From NCBI RefSeq assembly GCF_003340345.1, contig NZ_PPTQ01000007.1:62001-126000 (forward strand): DNA of 64,000 nt, written 5' to 3'. Numbering within the stretch: position 1 is the first letter of the stretch; each line of letters opens with the position of its first letter. The translations under genes were made by a program, and so were the position numbers. The DNA is from Paraeggerthella hongkongensis. Its GTDB lineage: Bacteria; Actinomycetota; Coriobacteriia; Coriobacteriales; Eggerthellaceae. Below, piece after piece: positions 16,014 through 62,592 of this stretch. The notes under the pieces are model-generated. The model saw only the letters and a list, made by a program, of their open reading frames with translations. It was not told the DNA's origin and searched no databases.

Positions 16014-16227
16014 ACTTGCGCGCAAAAACCTGCCCTCGCTGGCAGGTTTTTGCGTTTAGGGGTCGTTGAGTCGGGCGTTGTTCCGGGCGTCGCTTCGCTT
16101 GCTTTTCGTCTTGCCTGGTCACGAAGCTGTGCTGCTGTGCTATGCGCTCGCGCTGGTTCGCTCGGCTGGATCAAACGACCGCAAACCGTCAAAACCTGCC
16201 AGCGAGGGCGGTTTTTCGCGCGCAAGT
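16014..16227. repeat. MITE-like element, copy A (terminal inverted repeats)
   Basis: About 214 bp bounded by ~40-bp inverted repeats: the left end begins ACTTGCGCGCAAAAACC and the right end is its complement with a few changes, both followed by CCCTCGCTGGCAGGTTTT. The interior contains TTGCCTGGTCA. A second copy, in the opposite orientation by its interior, lies at 56029-56256. No transposase is present. Short open frames through it are not convincing genes. It fills most of the 15943-16405 gap. Confidence 0.8.
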
Positions 16228-29390: not shown

Positions 29391-29437
29391 GGAGCGGCTG
29401 CGAAACGCGCGGCTTCCCGGGCTGACCGCAGTCCTGC

Positions 29438-29471
29438 GACCGGCGGCGGGATCCAGGCCCCGCCGCCGGTC
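29438..29471. terminator. GC-rich hairpin between convergent operons
   Basis: A perfect 13-bp inverted repeat (29438-29450 with 29459-29471) lies between the activase stop and the stop of the minus-strand FtsX-like gene. It lacks a T run, so termination is likely but not certain. Confidence 0.55.
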
Positions 29472-29476
29472 GGGGC

Positions 29477-37955: not shown

Positions 37956-38083
37956 CATCGAACGAGGCGCTGCCTTATCGATTGTGAATCCGCTGACCCG
38001 GCGGCAGAGGCTCCTCTCGTCTGGCCGACTGCCGCATCATGCAAGCGGAGGGAAGATCCCCCCTTCTTCCCTCCGCTTTTCTT
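37956..38083 (+). ncRNA. Candidate iron-regulated small RNA (~125 nt)
   Basis: From the predicted start the sequence runs about 90 nt with no convincing gene, then ends in a strong intrinsic terminator: AAGCGGAGGGAAGA (38043-38056) pairs with its complement at 38065-38078, followed by TTTT. Because the terminator lies before the dtxR ribosome site, the promoter would yield a short RNA, or an attenuated dtxR leader. Both boundaries are predictions. Confidence 0.4.
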
Positions 38084-39188: not shown

Positions 39189-40321
39189 TTCGGTCCCTGA
39201 TGGCTGCCGAAGGCGATGCGGGCGTTTCGGCTTCGGCTTCGGCTTCGGCAGCTTCGGCTTCGGCGGCCTCGGCGCGCGGTTCGGGAAGGGCGGCGCATGC
39301 TCAGGCGCGCATCGAGCGACGGAACTGGCTGGTTGTCGCCGTGCTCGTTGCCGTGTGCGTCGCGGTTTCTCTGTGCGCGCTCGCAAGCGGCGCTTCCGAC
39401 ATGAACCCGCTTGCCAGCGCGCAGGCGCTGTTGGGGATCGGGTCTGCGCAGGACGTCATGACCGTGCGATCCATTCGTCTGCCGCGCGTGCTGTGCGCTA
39501 TCGTTTCCGGCGCCGGCCTGGCGCTGGCAGGAGCCGTGCTGCAAAGCGTTCTGGAGAATCCGCTCGCATCCGCATCGACCGTGGGGATTTCCCAGGGAGC
39601 TGCCTTCGGCGCCACGTTGGCCCTTCTTGTGGTGGCTCCTGTTGTGGCGGGCGCTTCCACGGGGATCGGCATGGGTGCCGTCGCCCTGTTCGCGTTCGCT
39701 GGCGCCTTGGCGTCGAGCGCGGTGGTGCTGCTGTTCTCGCGGCTGGGGTCTTCCAGCCCGGAGAGCATCGTGCTGGTGGGTGTTGCGCTTTCGGCTTTGT
39801 GGGCGGGCGCGTCGACCATCATCCAGTATTTTTCGGACGATCTTGCCCTGACGAAAGTGATCTTTTGGCAGTTCGGCGATTTGGGCCGTGCAACGTGGTC
39901 TCAAATCGGCTTCATGGCCCTGGTGGGTGCTGCGTGCGCGCTGTACTTTTTCGCGAATCGCTGGAACTACAATGCGTTGCAAAACGGCGGCCAGGTTGCG
40001 GGCGGCTTGGGCGTGAACGTGGTGCGTTGCCGCGTGCTGGGCGTTGTGGCGTCTACGGTCATGGCGGCGGCGATGGTGTCGTTCGTGGGGCTTGTCAACT
40101 TCATCGGGCTCATTGCCCCTCATATTGCTCGCCGTCTTGTGGGCAACGACTACCGCTTCCTGCTGCCGGCATCGCTTGTCCTGGGGTCGATCATCATGCT
40201 GGCCAGCGACCTTGCGGCGCGCATGGTCATATCGCCCGTGGTGCTCCCCATTGGCGCCATCACGTCGTTTCTGGGCGCGCCGCTGTTTTTGTACCTGCTG
40301 TACAAGGGGTGCAAGCGATGA
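39185..40321 (+). CDS. FecCD-family ABC permease
   Basis: The protein has 378 residues with about nine to ten membrane helices and FecCD/BtuC landmarks (RLPRVLCAIVSGAGLALAG, GLVNFIGLIAPHIAR). The N-terminus holds a Ser-Ala repeat (SASASASAASASAASA) coded by a CTTCGG-type tandem run. GTG at 39185 overlaps the fmdE stop and follows GGGAGGG; an ATG at 39200 is an alternative. Fec-type importers carry siderophores, haem, cobalamin and, in MolBCA, molybdate. Confidence 0.93.
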   Translation: MIRSLMAAEGDAGVSASASASAASASAASARGSGRAAHAQARIERRNWLVVAVLVAVCVAVSLCALASGASDMNPLASAQALLGIGSAQDVMTVRSIRLPRVLCAIVSGAGLALAGAVLQSVLENPLASASTVGISQGAAFGATLALLVVAPVVAGASTGIGMGAVALFAFAGALASSAVVLLFSRLGSSSPESIVLVGVALSALWAGASTIIQYFSDDLALTKVIFWQFGDLGRATWSQIGFMALVGAACALYFFANRWNYNALQNGGQVAGGLGVNVVRCRVLGVVASTVMAAAMVSFVGLVNFIGLIAPHIARRLVGNDYRFLLPASLVLGSIIMLASDLAARMVISPVVLPIGAITSFLGAPLFLYLLYKGCKR

Positions 40322-41193
40322 GGTGCGAGCAGTTGGGGAAGGGCGATCCTGCCGTGAGCGTCGAGGAGGCGCGGGCGCTGCTCCAGGAGGTGTTCGACGC
40401 TCCTGCGGCTGATTCGCGGATCCCCGAGCGCCCCGTGCTGTCCGCCGAGGCAGTGGCGTATGCGTACCCCGCTGCCGAAAAGCCGGTGTTTCGCGGCATC
40501 GACGTGCAGGCGACCGCGGGGTCGATGCTGGCCATCCTGGGGAACAACGGAGCAGGGAAGTCTACGCTGCTCAACGTTTTGGCGGGCATCGTTCGCCCGA
40601 GCGAGGGGTCGGTGAAGGTCGATGGTCGCGACGTCGCGTCGCTCGGCCGCCGCGACGTCGCCCGCCGCATTGCCTTGGTTGCGCAGCAGCAGCGTATCCC
40701 TCACTTGAGCGTGTACGACCAGGTGCTGCTGGGGCGAAAGCCGCATGTTTCGTGGTCGTTGTCCGATCGCGATCGTCGGGTGGTGTCCGCTATGATCGAG
40801 CGTCTGGGGCTTGAGCGATTCGCCGCGCGCTATCTTGACGAGCTGTCCGGAGGCGAGCGTCAGAAGGTGTTCATCGCCCGTGCGCTTGCGCAGGAGCCGA
40901 AGGTTTTGCTGCTCGACGAGCCCACGAGCGCGCTCGATCCGAAGAACCAGCTGGAGGTTTTGGGCATCGTGCGCGACGTGACCGCTTCGGAGTCCATTGC
41001 TTCGGTGCTGGTGATCCACGACATCAACCTGGCATTGCGATTCTGCGATCGTTTTTTACTGGTGCGCGATGGCTGCGTGGTGGCGTACGGCAACCGCGAG
41101 GCGGTGACCGACGAGGCTCTGTCGGCCACGTACGACGTGGGCTTCAAGGTGGACGCGGTGGGCGACGTTCCGGTAGCCGTGCCGCTTGGTTGA
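40318..41193 (+). CDS. Fec-type ABC ATPase
   Basis: The protein has 291 residues with Walker A GNNGAGKST near residue 76, signature LSGGERQK and Walker B VLLLDEPTSALD. It overlaps the permease gene by ATGA. The receptor gene for this importer lies convergent, on the other side of a palindrome cluster. The first ~40 residues (EEARALLQEVFDAPAAD) are an extra N-terminal stretch. Confidence 0.93.
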   Translation: MRCEQLGKGDPAVSVEEARALLQEVFDAPAADSRIPERPVLSAEAVAYAYPAAEKPVFRGIDVQATAGSMLAILGNNGAGKSTLLNVLAGIVRPSEGSVKVDGRDVASLGRRDVARRIALVAQQQRIPHLSVYDQVLLGRKPHVSWSLSDRDRRVVSAMIERLGLERFAARYLDELSGGERQKVFIARALAQEPKVLLLDEPTSALDPKNQLEVLGIVRDVTASESIASVLVIHDINLALRFCDRFLLVRDGCVVAYGNREAVTDEALSATYDVGFKVDAVGDVPVAVPLG

Positions 41194-41250
41194 CGGCGCG
41201 GCGCAACGGGCGCTCGCTATCGTTCGCGGTCGCAAGGCGCGCCCGCTTTC

Positions 41251-41306
41251 ATTGTCGATCCAAAAACACGTTTTCGGGGCCGAAAACGTGTTTTTGGATC
41301 GACAAT
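41251..41306. terminator. 56-bp perfect palindrome between convergent genes
   Basis: Arms of 27 bp (41251-41277 and 41280-41306) are perfect complements with a 2-base centre; the arms include an A5 run and TTTTCGG. Further out, CGTTCGCGGTCG (41221-41232) pairs with CGACCGCGAACG, extending the symmetry. It could terminate both convergent operons, but its length and perfection exceed what termination needs. Confidence 0.75.
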
Positions 41307-41347
41307 TCCCGGAGCCGACCGCGAACGAGCGAGATGACGGGTGCCGC

Positions 41348-41411
41348 CGTCCCGTTGCGCGGGCGCGCAACGGGACGTTCGGGTGCTCGACGCCGAGGTC
41401 GAGCACCCGAA
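41348..41411. repeat. Two adjacent perfect palindromes
   Basis: The first (41348-41377) has 14-bp arms beginning CGTCCCGTTGCGCG around GG. The second (41378-41411) has 14-bp arms beginning TTCGGGTGCTCGAC around GCCGAG. They directly abut and follow the 56-bp palindrome. The remainder of the gap to 41468 is GC-rich without a gene. Confidence 0.8.
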
Positions 41412-41468
41412 CGCACGAATGCGGGAGGTTGCGCGGCTGCTCCGTAGCCCTGCGGCCGTGCTCGGGCG

Positions 41469-42614
41469 CTACAGGTTTGCCAGATCGATCTGCTTGAATT
41501 CGCACCCTTCGGCGGCAAGGTCGCTCGAAAGCCTGGCTCCCAAGAAGAACTCCGTGATCTCGTCGAGCTTTTGCGTGGGATCGATGTCAGCGAACTGCGC
41601 GGGGTAGACGGTTGCTCCTACTTGGTAGCAGTTTGCCAAGGCCAGCTCGATGTTGGTGGCGTAGAAGCGATAGGCGATGAGCGTGCTCACCTTGCCGTCC
41701 TGCACCGCCTTGAGCGCGGAGAAGTAGGAGGGATTGGCTTCGTAGTCCTCTTTCACGAGCGGCAGGTTCCCGCTTTCGACGAACACGTAGTCGGGCTGTG
41801 CGCTGGAGATGGCTTCGAGGTCGATGTCGAAAGCTCCGCTCGCGCCGTTCACGTCGGCGACGTTCTTCACGTTGGTCGCCTGGAAGGGCGGGAAGTTCGC
41901 TTCCGTTCCCGCGAAGCCGTGGCCGCCGCGGAAGCTGATGCCGGCTGCGTACGCCGTTTTGACCTGGTCGGCGGGAAGGCTAGCCGTGCGCTTCTCGAGG
42001 TCTGCGCGCGTGTCCTCCATGTAGCGGACGATGTCCGCCGCGCGCTCCTGCTTGCCAACGATGCTCCCAACCAGGTTGACGTTGTCGTAGAACGCCTGGT
42101 CGAACACCACGTTGCTCAAGGTCAGGCACACTACGGGAACGCCGGTCCTTTCTTGGAGGGCGTCGGCGGCGTCTTTGTCGATCGAGGCGAACACGACGTC
42201 GGGCGCCGCTTGCATGATGGCCTCCTCGTTTGGGGTGGTTCCCTTCGACCCTCCGTCGCCGATGACGGGCAGGTTCTTGAACGTTTCGTGGTTGACATGG
42301 CGATAGCTGCAGGTGACGTTGTCCTTCAGCTCGGACTGCTCCACGCCGACCACCTTGTCTGCGGCGTTCAGGTACGAGATCAGCCGCAGCGAGCTCGATC
42401 CGATGCCTATGAGGCGTTGCGCTTCGGCGGGGACTTCGACGCTGCGACCGAGCATGTCGGTAACCGTGACGGTTTGCGAAGTTGCCGGGGGATCCTGCTG
42501 TGCGCTCTCGGTTTGTCCGGCGCCGCATCCTCCTAGGCATAGGATGCTGATCGCGGCGGCCAGCAGCACCGCGGCGATCAGCCGAAGCCGTTTCGTCGTT
42601 TTCAGTTGGGGCAT
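41469..42614 (-). CDS. Fec-type substrate-binding lipoprotein
   Basis: The protein has 381 residues with a lipoprotein signal (lipobox LGGC near residue 29) and a helical-backbone periplasmic-binding fold (class III; VTDMLGRSVEVPAEAQRLIGIG, QAAPDVVFASID). It is the likely receptor of the FecCD/ATPase importer encoded convergently upstream. The shared direct-repeat operator supports that pairing. The ligand could be an iron complex, corrinoid or oxyanion. Confidence 0.92.
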   Translation of the reverse strand: MPQLKTTKRLRLIAAVLLAAAISILCLGGCGAGQTESAQQDPPATSQTVTVTDMLGRSVEVPAEAQRLIGIGSSSLRLISYLNAADKVVGVEQSELKDNVTCSYRHVNHETFKNLPVIGDGGSKGTTPNEEAIMQAAPDVVFASIDKDAADALQERTGVPVVCLTLSNVVFDQAFYDNVNLVGSIVGKQERAADIVRYMEDTRADLEKRTASLPADQVKTAYAAGISFRGGHGFAGTEANFPPFQATNVKNVADVNGASGAFDIDLEAISSAQPDYVFVESGNLPLVKEDYEANPSYFSALKAVQDGKVSTLIAYRFYATNIELALANCYQVGATVYPAQFADIDPTQKLDEITEFFLGARLSSDLAAEGCEFKQIDLANL

Positions 42615-42879: not shown

Positions 42880-45468
42880 TTGGGCACCCTGAACAACCTG
42901 CCCATTGGGAAGGCCGCCACGGTGGTGGGGGTTGGCGGCGAAGGATCGCTTCGCCAGCACTTCCTGGACATGGGCATTATTCCGCAAGTCGACATCGCCA
43001 TGGTGAAGCATGCTCCCATGGGCGATCCCGTGGAGGTGCGCGTCCACGGCTACGAGCTGACGCTGCGTTTGGACGATGCGCAGAAGATCGAGATCGACGA
43101 TGTGCGCGAAGCCAGCGAACCTCGCCGGGAGCCGCTTGCGCGGCGCCCCTTGCCTCACCCAGGTTTGGGCGAGGGCGGGAAGTTCCACGACAAGGCCGCC
43201 GAAAGCCCGCTGCCCGAAGGAACGCCGCTCACCTTCGCTCTCGTAGGAAACCAAAACTGCGGCAAAACAACCCTGTTCAATCAGCTGACCGGCGCGAACC
43301 AGCACGTGGGCAACTTCCCCGGGGTGACGGTCGACCGCAAGGACGGCGTGGTCAAGGGACATCCCGAGGCGTTGGTAACGGATCTTCCGGGCATCTACTC
43401 GATGTCGCCCCACTCGAGCGAAGAGGTGGTTACCAGGCGGTTTTTGCTGGAGGATCGTCCGCGCGGCATCATCAACATCGTGGACGCCACCAATATCGAG
43501 CGCAACCTGTACCTGACCATGCAGCTGCTTGAGCTGGACATACCCATGGTGCTGGCCCTTAACATGATGGACGAGATGGAGGGCAACGGCGGCACCGTCC
43601 TGGTGAACGAGATTGAAGAGCTGCTGGGCATTCCAGTGGTTCCCATTTCGGCGTCCAAGAACGCGGGCATCGAGGAGCTGGTGGAGCACGCGCTGCATGT
43701 GGCGCGTTTCCAGGAGCCGCCTGTTCGCCAGGACTTCTGCGCGGCTGACGAGCATGGCGGCGCCGTGCACCGCTGCCTGCACGGCATCATGGCGCTGATC
43801 GACGACCATGCCGAGCGCGCGGGCATTCCGCCGCGGTTCGCCGCCAGCAAGCTGGCGGAGGGCGACGCGCTTGTTTTGGAGAAGCTGCATCTGGATCAAA
43901 ACGAGAAGGACATGCTCGACCACATCGTGGCCCAAATGGAGGCTGAACGCGGTCTCGACCGCGCGGCGGCTATCGCCGACATGCGTTTCTGCTTCATCGG
44001 GCGCGTGTGCGAAGACACGGTGGTCAGGCCGCACGAGAGCCGCGAGCATGCGCGCAGCATGCTTGTCGATCGCGTGCTGACCGGCACCTATACGGCCATA
44101 CCCGCCTTCGCGGCCATCATGGCGCTTGTGTTCTGGCTTACGTTCGACGTGGTGGGCGCCTGGCTTTCGGAGGTTCTGGACGCCGGCATCGGGTGGCTTA
44201 CCGACGTGACCGCCGCTGCGCTGACCGCCGCCCAGGTGAACGAGGGGCTGCGATCGCTTGTCATCGACGGCGTGTTCAACGGGGTGGGAAGCGTGCTCAG
44301 CTTCCTGCCGATCATCGTCACGCTGTTCTTCTTCCTGTCGCTTCTTGAAGATTCCGGCTACATGGCGCGCGTGGCGTTCGTCATGGACAAGCTGTTGCGC
44401 AAGATAGGCCTGTCGGGGCGCAGCATCGTGCCCATGCTGATCGGATTCGGGTGCACGGTTCCGGCCGTGATGGCGTCGCGCACGCTGCCGTCCGAGCGGG
44501 ATCGCAAGATGACCATCCTGCTCACTCCGTATATGAGCTGTTCGGCTAAGCTGCCCATTTACGCGTTCTTCACGGCGGCGTTCTTCCCGACGAGCGGGGC
44601 CTTGGTGATGGTGGGCCTGTATTTCGGCGGCATTGCGGTGGGCGTGCTGGTGGCGCTGGCGTTGCGCCGCACGTTGTTCTCGGGCGAGGCCGTGCCGTTC
44701 GTCATGGAGCTGCCGAACTACCGCATGCCCAGCGTGCGCAGCGTCGGTCAGCTGCTGTGGGAGAAGGCGAAGGATTTCCTGGAGCGCGCCTTCACGGTCA
44801 TTTTCGTGGCGACCATCGTCATCTGGTTCTTGCAGACGTTCGACTTCAGCTTGAACATGGTGGCGAGCTCCGAGGACAGCATGCTGGCCGTGGTGGCCGG
44901 CTGGATCGCCCCGGTGTTCGCGCCGCTCGGATTCGGGGATTGGCGGATTTCGACGGCGCTCGTCACCGGCTTCATGGCCAAGGAAAGCGTCGTGTCCACG
45001 CTGTCCATCCTGTTCGGCAGCACGGCGAGCCTGGTTGCCGTCATGAGCTCCGTGGCTGCGTTGGCTTTGCTGGTGTTCTGCCTGCTGTACACGCCGTGCG
45101 TGGCGGCGGTGGCGGCGGTGAAGCGCGAACTGGGCGGGAAGTGGGCGCTCGGCGTGGTGTTCGGCCAGTTGGCGGTGGCGTGGGTTGCCGCGTTCGTCGT
45201 GCACGGCGTGGGAACGCTTGCGGTGGACGCCGGAGGGAACGCGTGGACGCTGGCGGTGGGCGCGCTGGTGGCGGTGCTCGTCGTGCTGGCTTTGGCGCGC
45301 ATGCGCTCGCGCCGCGCGAGGGGAAGCGGATGCGAGTCGTCGTGCGATGGCTGCGAAGGCTGCGCGCAGGTGCCGGTGCCGCGCGCGGCTGACGGGGACG
45401 GCGGGTCGTTCGAATCCGAGCCTGCGCGCGCCGATGCGCAGCATGACGATCGGGCGCGAAGGCGCTAG
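42880..45468 (+). CDS. feoB: Ferrous iron transporter, FeoA-FeoB fusion
   Basis: The protein has 862 residues. Residues ~1-75 are a FeoA domain (LNNLPIGKAATVVGVGGEGS, with RQHFLDMGIIPQ). The FeoB G domain follows at ~112 (GNQNCGKTTLFN, DLPGIYS, NMMDE). The C-terminal half holds gate regions and about eleven membrane helices (GFGCTVPAVMASRTL). A cysteine-rich tail (CESSCDGCEGCAQ, near 824) follows. The TTG start at 42880 is chosen because AAGGAG (42869-42874) precedes it and the FeoA domain begins at once. It imports Fe(II) using GTP. Confidence 0.95.
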   Translation: MGTLNNLPIGKAATVVGVGGEGSLRQHFLDMGIIPQVDIAMVKHAPMGDPVEVRVHGYELTLRLDDAQKIEIDDVREASEPRREPLARRPLPHPGLGEGGKFHDKAAESPLPEGTPLTFALVGNQNCGKTTLFNQLTGANQHVGNFPGVTVDRKDGVVKGHPEALVTDLPGIYSMSPHSSEEVVTRRFLLEDRPRGIINIVDATNIERNLYLTMQLLELDIPMVLALNMMDEMEGNGGTVLVNEIEELLGIPVVPISASKNAGIEELVEHALHVARFQEPPVRQDFCAADEHGGAVHRCLHGIMALIDDHAERAGIPPRFAASKLAEGDALVLEKLHLDQNEKDMLDHIVAQMEAERGLDRAAAIADMRFCFIGRVCEDTVVRPHESREHARSMLVDRVLTGTYTAIPAFAAIMALVFWLTFDVVGAWLSEVLDAGIGWLTDVTAAALTAAQVNEGLRSLVIDGVFNGVGSVLSFLPIIVTLFFFLSLLEDSGYMARVAFVMDKLLRKIGLSGRSIVPMLIGFGCTVPAVMASRTLPSERDRKMTILLTPYMSCSAKLPIYAFFTAAFFPTSGALVMVGLYFGGIAVGVLVALALRRTLFSGEAVPFVMELPNYRMPSVRSVGQLLWEKAKDFLERAFTVIFVATIVIWFLQTFDFSLNMVASSEDSMLAVVAGWIAPVFAPLGFGDWRISTALVTGFMAKESVVSTLSILFGSTASLVAVMSSVAALALLVFCLLYTPCVAAVAAVKRELGGKWALGVVFGQLAVAWVAAFVVHGVGTLAVDAGGNAWTLAVGALVAVLVVLALARMRSRRARGSGCESSCDGCEGCAQVPVPRAADGDGGSFESEPARADAQHDDRARRR

Positions 45469-62552: not shown

Positions 62553-62592
62553 AAGAAGGGCCGCATCGAGGAAAGATGCGGCCCTTCTTTTG
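62553..62592 (+). terminator. Intrinsic terminator of acs
   Basis: A perfect 15-bp stem (62553-62567 with 62575-62589) with a 7-base loop is followed by TTTT. Confidence 0.92.

What the first reader, a model, noticed from the sequence alone, without database searches (positions are those of the whole stretch)
41221..41411. Cluster of three perfect palindromes between convergent genes
A 56-bp palindrome with 27-bp arms, then 30-bp and 34-bp palindromes with 14-bp arms, abut with little spacing; an outer 12-bp pair encloses the first. One intrinsic terminator would suffice here. The array could be a transcription insulator, a recombination or methylation target, or a processed RNA.
Basis: seen in the sequence. 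Interest (0 to 1): 0.57.

Follow-up and report, generated by a model that had tools for sequence, protein, structure and literature searches.

The report
Dispersed palindromes tied to a nuclease
A 56-base mirror-image DNA sequence in this gut bacterium turns out to be one of about 28 copies scattered between its genes, and relatives of it across a class of bacteria sit beside the gene of one unusual, probably DNA-cutting protein, which looks like an undescribed kind of repeat system.

Summary
The palindromes are real and far beyond chance. The first (41251-41306) is one of about 28 dispersed 56-bp palindromes in this Paraeggerthella-like genome (27 in P. hongkongensis); a covariance model finds them in 20 of 138 family genomes. 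The unit ends sharply. Stems are conserved (3.8% divergence per site, against 17.9% in the spacer and 10.8% in flanks), and about half of the stem changes are paired. The window copy is identical, 56 of 56 bases, to a palindrome just upstream of a gene for a ~350-aa protein with an AbiEi-like N-terminus and a Vsr/DUF559-like nuclease C-terminus. A paralogue is bordered on both sides by the second palindrome class. Across Coriobacteriia such genes are bordered by lineage-specific palindromes (16 of 27 loci, against 0 of 154 control windows; outside Eggerthellaceae 6 of 15 against 0 of 88). Arms of ~21 bp with a ~14-bp spacer resemble published AbiEi operators (23-bp repeats, 3 or 13 bp apart). 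Best reading: a REPIN/RAYT-like system whose partner is a restriction-fold nuclease, not a tyrosine transposase. Movement, binding and cleavage are inferred, not shown. Palindromes two and three are local, conserved hairpins, probably terminators.

The parts
41251..41306 (.). 56-bp dispersed palindrome, class I (21-24-bp conserved arms, variable centre)
   Evidence: identical 56/56 to G000:C2:90423-90478 beside the nuclease-like gene
41348..41377 (.). second hairpin, 14-bp perfect arms; local, not in the dispersed family; hairpin kept in P. hongkongensis with changed sequence; probable terminator
41376..41413 (.). third hairpin, 16-bp perfect arms, 6-base loop; local; also a hairpin in P. hongkongensis; probable terminator
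41220..41232 (.). left half of the outer inverted pair; only partly kept in P. hongkongensis
41316..41328 (.). right half of the outer inverted pair
40318..41193 (+). flanking gene: ABC transporter ATP-binding protein (PF00005)
41469..42614 (-). flanking convergent gene: periplasmic binding protein (PF01497)

Best explanation
The 56-bp palindrome is one member of a dispersed family of two-armed extragenic palindromes (about 21-bp arm, 14-bp variable spacer, 21-bp arm). The family's partner is a low-copy gene for a protein with an AbiEi-like DNA-binding N-terminus and a PD-(D/E)XK (Vsr/DUF559-like) nuclease C-terminus. Shown: dispersal, sharp ends, stem conservation, a partner gene bordered by matching palindromes, one palindrome class per paralogue. 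Inferred: two protein monomers bind the two arms, as AbiEi antitoxins bind paired inverted repeats, and the nuclease domain nicks or cuts at the element; that seeds copying of one arm from the other and, rarely, a new copy elsewhere. In effect it is a REPIN-like population kept by a restriction-fold nuclease instead of a RAYT tyrosine transposase. The two neighbouring hairpins (41348-41413) are most likely ordinary terminators of the two convergent genes.
For: Dispersal: 28 places in G000 (56 matches on two strands), 27 in G001 (54 matches), 20 of 138 family genomes. Unit: information falls from 2 bits at element position 1 to about 0.2 outside, with a partly conserved C next to it (0.9-1.0 bit); G004 holds five identical and three identical 55-nt copies with unrelated flanks. 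Conservation in 24 orthologous pairs: stem 3.8%, spacer 17.9%, flank 10.8% per site; 13 paired against 12 one-sided stem changes; covariation above all 500 shuffles. Partner: the protein is in 14 of 138 family genomes, 8 of them among the 20 palindrome genomes (Fisher p 8e-5, relatedness ignored). 13 of 16 gene loci have a long inverted repeat beside the gene, 7 on both sides. A model built from palindromes beside the genes finds copies in 7 of 9 gene-bearing genomes. Test on 27 loci: 16 against 0 of 154 control windows; outside Eggerthellaceae 6 of 15 against 0 of 88. Protein: AbiEi profiles reach 6e-11 over the N-terminus; E, D, ExDG and K are invariant in the C-terminus; a relative found by tblastn (5e-7) passes the DUF559 cut-off. 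Operator geometry: PMC7319586, passages read.
Against: No movement was seen: at the two sites present in only one of the two Paraeggerthella species the other species lacks or has replaced a larger, ragged stretch, with no clean 56-bp gap and no target duplication. 12 of 20 palindrome genomes lack the gene at E 1e-20, and G093 and G137 have the gene but no R2 hits. 9 of 15 loci outside Eggerthellaceae show no strong inverted repeat beside the gene. None of 14 members matches DUF559 in Pfam, one further homologue only weakly (0.022), and PDB sequences gave nothing. No binding or cleavage data exist.
Confidence: 0.6

Rival explanations
1. The palindromes are stationary operators or chromosome marks: the AbiEi-like protein is a regulator or DNA-organising factor that binds about 28 fixed sites, and its nuclease-like domain has a separate or defensive role.
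For: A palindrome lies about 90-100 bp upstream of the gene in most Eggerthellaceae cases, as for AbiEi autoregulation. Most sites are shared by the two Paraeggerthella species and stems are under constraint.
Against: Few sites lie in divergent promoter regions: 2 of 28 in G000 and 1 of 27 in G001 (home-made gene caller, no baseline computed). Palindromes persist in genomes without the gene. Each lineage and each paralogue has its own palindrome sequence. G004 has sets of identical copies at unrelated places.
Confidence: 0.22
2. The palindromes are old MITE- or REP-like repeats spread by some other transposase, and the nuclease-like gene is only a frequent neighbour or fellow traveller.
For: 12 of 20 palindrome genomes lack the gene; Y1 transposases exist in 71 of 138 family genomes.
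Against: No Y1 transposase in G000 itself. The palindrome class changes with the gene lineage, and palindromes border the gene in other families too.
Confidence: 0.13
3. All three are transcription terminators of the two convergent genes, the 56-bp one a bidirectional terminator.
For: The window site lies between convergent genes; 10 of 28 G000 sites are convergent. Stems are very stable. Likely for hairpins two and three.
Against: No stem followed by a T run was found in the region; the T runs of the 56-mer lie inside the stem. A terminator needs neither a fixed 56-nt length, a fixed ATTGTCG end, nor a link to one nuclease-like gene.
Confidence: 0.05

Closest known systems
REPIN/RAYT systems (REP doublets forming hairpins, with REP-associated tyrosine transposase)
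   Same: Short extragenic palindromes made of two conserved inverted ends and a variable spacer, many copies, partner gene of low copy number bordered by the repeats, each partner lineage with its own repeat class.
   Different: Partner here is an AbiEi/PD-(D/E)XK nuclease-like protein; no Y1 transposase in the window's genome; no GTAG foot; arms pair to their outer ends, 55-57 nt in all.
CGTC-tagged REPs (Di Nocera 2013, PMC3733652)
   Same: Dispersed palindromic repeats without a RAYT partner.
   Different: Those were reported in other phyla and carry a CGTC tag, a CCA-like tail and 4-5 base loops (passages); here ends are mostly ATTGTCG/CGACAAT, and a dedicated partner gene exists.
AbiE type IV toxin-antitoxin operators (AbiEi, Rv2827c)
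   Same: Paired inverted repeats of about 23 bp, 3 or 13 bp apart, upstream of a gene for an AbiEi-type winged-helix protein (passages).
   Different: Here the repeats are dispersed across the genome, the protein carries a nuclease-like C-terminus, and no toxin gene was seen next to the G000:C52 gene.
Bidirectional intrinsic terminators
   Same: Strong hairpins between convergent genes (fits hairpins two and three).
   Different: The 56-mer has no T run after its stem and is a dispersed family.

Membership tests
REP/RAYT (REPtron) | Y1 (HUH) tyrosine transposase in the genome, bordered by the repeats | tested here: not met
   PF01797 search: no match in G000; 71 of 138 family genomes have one
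REP/RAYT (REPtron) | GTAG tag at the foot of the palindrome | tested here: not met
   Alignment ends ATTGTCG...CGACAAT with no GTAG
REPIN | Two conserved inverted ends with a variable spacer, dispersed, extragenic | tested here: met
REPIN | Evidence of excision or transposition | tested here: inconclusive
   No clean empty site at the two sites compared; identical copies with unrelated flanks in G004
CGTC REP | Unpaired CGTC tag at one end | tested here: not met
   Ends mostly ATTGTCG, fully paired; some elements end ATCGTCG
MITE | Target-site duplication at an insertion | tested here: not met
   No duplication at the two sites compared
AbiE type IV toxin-antitoxin | AbiEi-type winged-helix protein with paired inverted repeats upstream | tested here: met
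   PADLOC AbiEi profiles on P0001-P0003; upstream palindromes; the winged-helix fold itself was not modelled
AbiE type IV toxin-antitoxin | AbiEii toxin gene in the same operon | tested here: not met
   G000:C52 gene stands alone between two palindromes; other loci not examined for this
DUF559/Vsr-like nuclease | Profile match over the curated cut-off | tested here: not met
   None of 14 A3 members matches DUF559; Collinsella homologue 0.022, below cut-off; a tblastn relative passes it
DUF559/Vsr-like nuclease | Conserved acidic core of a PD-(D/E)XK enzyme | tested here: met
   E207, D241, E255, D257, K261 invariant in A3 and A5; that these form the active site is recalled, not tested
Intrinsic terminator | Stem followed by a T run | tested here: not met
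   0 found in 41150-41480
Integron attC | IntI integrase partner | not tested
   No search made

The most novel reading that the evidence does not exclude
A new kind of bacterial repeat system: a population of dispersed two-armed palindromes maintained and spread by a restriction-fold (PD-(D/E)XK) nuclease fused to an AbiEi-type operator-binding domain. Nicking at the palindrome lets one arm template the other and seeds new copies. An antitoxin operator would thus have become a mobile element, an independent counterpart of REPIN/RAYT.
Probability: 0.45. Interest if true: 0.86.

Novelty: new variant of a known kind. Interest (0 to 1): 0.72.

Why it matters
REP-type palindromes are common, yet the dedicated partners described for them are tyrosine (HUH) transposases, and CGTC REPs have been left without any dedicated enzyme (PMC3733652, passages read). 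A class of gut bacteria in which dispersed palindromes go with an AbiEi-nuclease fusion would give a second, independent case to test how such sequence populations arise and persist. It would also give a concrete route from a toxin-antitoxin operator to a mobile element, and a function for part of the AbiEi/DUF559 protein group. It is testable with one protein and one oligonucleotide.

Tried and rejected
Rfam: 22 matches at E up to 10, all below gathering scores, best 0.005 to a microRNA model; rejected. Y1 transposase as partner: rejected for G000. Precise 56-bp insertion with target duplication: not found. Viral origin: three viral-contig scans found no relative; one unannotated phage-labelled record has a distant relative. 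PDB sequence search gave only chance hits. The genome-contig scan gave one relative locus, which named P. hongkongensis. Papers: nine searches showed no description of Coriobacteria palindromic repeats or of a nuclease partner in their listings; the library is open-access only. Cassette exchange between palindromes (7.8-kb and 10-kb segments) was considered; ordinary recombination between the 136-225-bp direct repeats that contain a palindrome explains both as well.

Full report
What is there. The window lies in a 2.86-Mb genome of 53 contigs (G000). Its nearest held relative, G001, is P. hongkongensis DSM 16106: G001 contig 5 has the length of NZ_QICD01000005.1, and the neighbouring protein is 93% identical. 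Between an ABC transporter ATPase (40318-41193, +) and a convergent periplasmic binding protein (41469-42614, -) lie three near-perfect palindromes: 41251-41306, 41348-41377 and 41376-41413. No perfect repeat with arms of 12 or more arose in 20 Markov sequences.

The first palindrome is a dispersed element. BLAST of the region against its own genome finds the 56-mer again on other contigs, while the second and third palindromes match only themselves. A covariance model (R1) built from 19 copies finds 56 matches on both strands, 28 places, in G000 and 27 places in G001. In the family it finds 20 of 138 genomes and 10 of 48 genera. Nearly all copies are 55-56 nt. In G000, read, there are 7 copies of class I (ATTGTCGATCC..., the window's class), 19 of class II (mostly ATTGTCGCCCGAAACGTACG...) and 2 with mixed arms.

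Unit and constraint. Information per position is 2 bits at element position 1 and about 0.2 outside in G000; only the next base (C, 0.9-1.0 bit) is partly shared. So the repeated unit is the palindrome itself. Of the 28 G000 sites, 24 were paired with a full-length palindrome at the orthologous place in G001. One more faces a shortened form, two belong to a G000 segment that shares a single G001 site, and one has no counterpart. Over the 24 pairs the stem differs at 3.8% of sites, the spacer at 17.9% and the flanks at 10.8%. Of 25 changed stem pairs 13 changed on both sides; 6 of these 13 come from one site where the class itself switched. In the alignment of 19 copies, 10 of 24 pairs show double changes, above all 500 shuffles and all slid controls. 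In G004 variants differ at one stem pair (A/T, G/C or T/A) with otherwise identical arms and loop. This fits copying of one arm from the other; palindrome self-correction by the host would do the same.

The partner gene. Palindromes in pairs 1.2 kb apart led to a ~350-aa protein. G000 has two copies. One (C52) has class II palindromes on both sides. The other (C2) has upstream of it a class I palindrome identical in all 56 bases to the one in the window. The family search found 14 of 138 genomes with the protein. Eight of them are among the 20 genomes with R1 palindromes (Fisher p 8e-5 by genome, 1.6e-4 by genus; these ignore relatedness). Of 16 gene loci, 13 have an inverted repeat of 17 or more paired bases beside the gene, not counting repeats of terminator type, 7 of them on both sides. 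The sequence differs by lineage: ATCTTCGCTCC... in G004 and G097, ATGTGCGACCG... in G007, and so on. A second model (R2) from nine such palindromes found many more copies: 139 matches on two strands in G004, 69 in G097, 26 in G074, 16 in G007, 6 each in G075 and G077, 1 in G020, none in G093 and G137 (150 candidates scored per genome).

Test beyond the discovery set. Class-wide the protein is in 141 of 396 Coriobacteriia genomes at E 1e-25. I examined the 29 loci L225-L253 (best hits only, of many more matches); two gave no usable frame. Of the other 27, 16 have a strong inverted repeat next to the gene, 7 on both sides, against 0 of 154 control windows in the same loci. Restricted to the 15 loci outside Eggerthellaceae it is 6 against 0 of 88 (p 3.5e-6); nine loci there show none at that threshold, though one of them has weaker, matching arms on both sides. 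A Collinsella aerofaciens homologue (35% identity) has hairpin arrays on both sides, each hairpin 59 nt and repeating every 80-81 nt, with further copies in the 100 kb around it and none in another 50 kb. In another genus of the order (g77) the palindrome beside the gene recurs at 3 places in G329 and 2 in G312, and is not found in G255 and G352.

What the protein is. Pfam names little: AbiEi_4 in 6 of 14 members, best 7e-5, and 6e-4, under the cut-off, for P0002. PADLOC AbiEi profiles reach 6e-11 over about residues 30-170. The C-terminal half keeps E, D, ExDG and K in all members. A relative found by tblastn (5e-7) passes the DUF559 cut-off and comes near that of REase_MTES_1575. That these residues form a Vsr/PD-(D/E)XK site is from knowledge of those families. 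AbiEi binds two 23-bp inverted repeats 3 bp apart, and Rv2827c pairs of 23-bp repeats 13 bp apart (PMC7319586, passages). The palindrome here is about 21 + 14 + 21, strikingly similar. That the protein binds the arms is inference.

Mechanism, shown and inferred. Shown: dispersal, sharp unit, conserved stems, class-to-gene correspondence. Inferred: binding of two monomers to the arms; nicking by the nuclease domain; arm copying; occasional new copies. Against easy mobility: the two sites present in only one species face ragged gaps rather than clean ones. Sites avoid genes and rarely lie between divergent genes (G000: 10 convergent, 16 same-direction, 2 divergent; G001: 11, 14, 1 and one undetermined; home-made gene caller, no baseline), though two of the Collinsella spots are in divergent regions by the record's annotation.

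Known relatives. REPINs are REP doublets in inverted order with a spacer (PMC3116915, passages), duplicated by single-copy, vertically inherited RAYTs (PMC8049555, passages). CGTC REPs have no dedicated transposase (PMC3733652, passages). The window's genome has no Y1 transposase and its palindromes no GTAG foot, so it is not a member of REP/RAYT; it works like one. Nine paper searches (listed under Tried and rejected) found no report of this pairing; subscription journals and preprints were not covered.

Hairpins two and three. In G001 both positions again form perfect hairpins (15- and 14-bp arms) with changed sequence. They are local and probably terminators of the two genes, although no T run follows.

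Noticed in passing
G000:C50:72834-83154 (L170) against G001:C13 (L032): About 10 kb present in G000 and absent in G001, with three palindromes inside 136-bp direct repeats; two of them have arms mixed between class I and II, a sign of exchange between classes.
   Followed up: partly
G001:C1:31697-39584 (L169) against G000:C23:29974 (L171): 7.8 kb lies between two palindromes in G001 where G000 has a single palindrome; about 225 bp are shared at both ends.
   Followed up: partly
G001:C3:101762-102795 (L188, L199): The P. hongkongensis copy of the nuclease-like gene is broken (two frames, one stop) although its palindromes persist on both sides.
   Followed up: no
G001:C5:34819, 41562, 41684 (L036): Three nearby palindromes share the unusual end ATCGTCG/CGACGAT, while the G000 counterparts keep ATTGTCG; looks like local concerted change.
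   Followed up: no
L174:12991-13046 (G001:C18): Another 56-nt palindrome of unrelated sequence, found by the palindrome scan.
   Followed up: no
L254:36235-36454, 42005-42144, 43248-43547; L255:1073-1291: Collinsella aerofaciens hairpins of exactly 59 nt in arrays with a period of 80-81 nt.
   Followed up: partly
window:4829-4872, 16021-16054, 29437-29472, 38043-38078, 62553-62589: Further perfect hairpins with arms of 14-18 bp in the window, probably terminators.
   Followed up: no
12 of 20 palindrome-bearing family genomes, e.g. G095, G096, G031, G118: Palindromes without a detectable nuclease-like gene at E 1e-20, with a gene-bearing species in the same genus for several of them.
   Followed up: no
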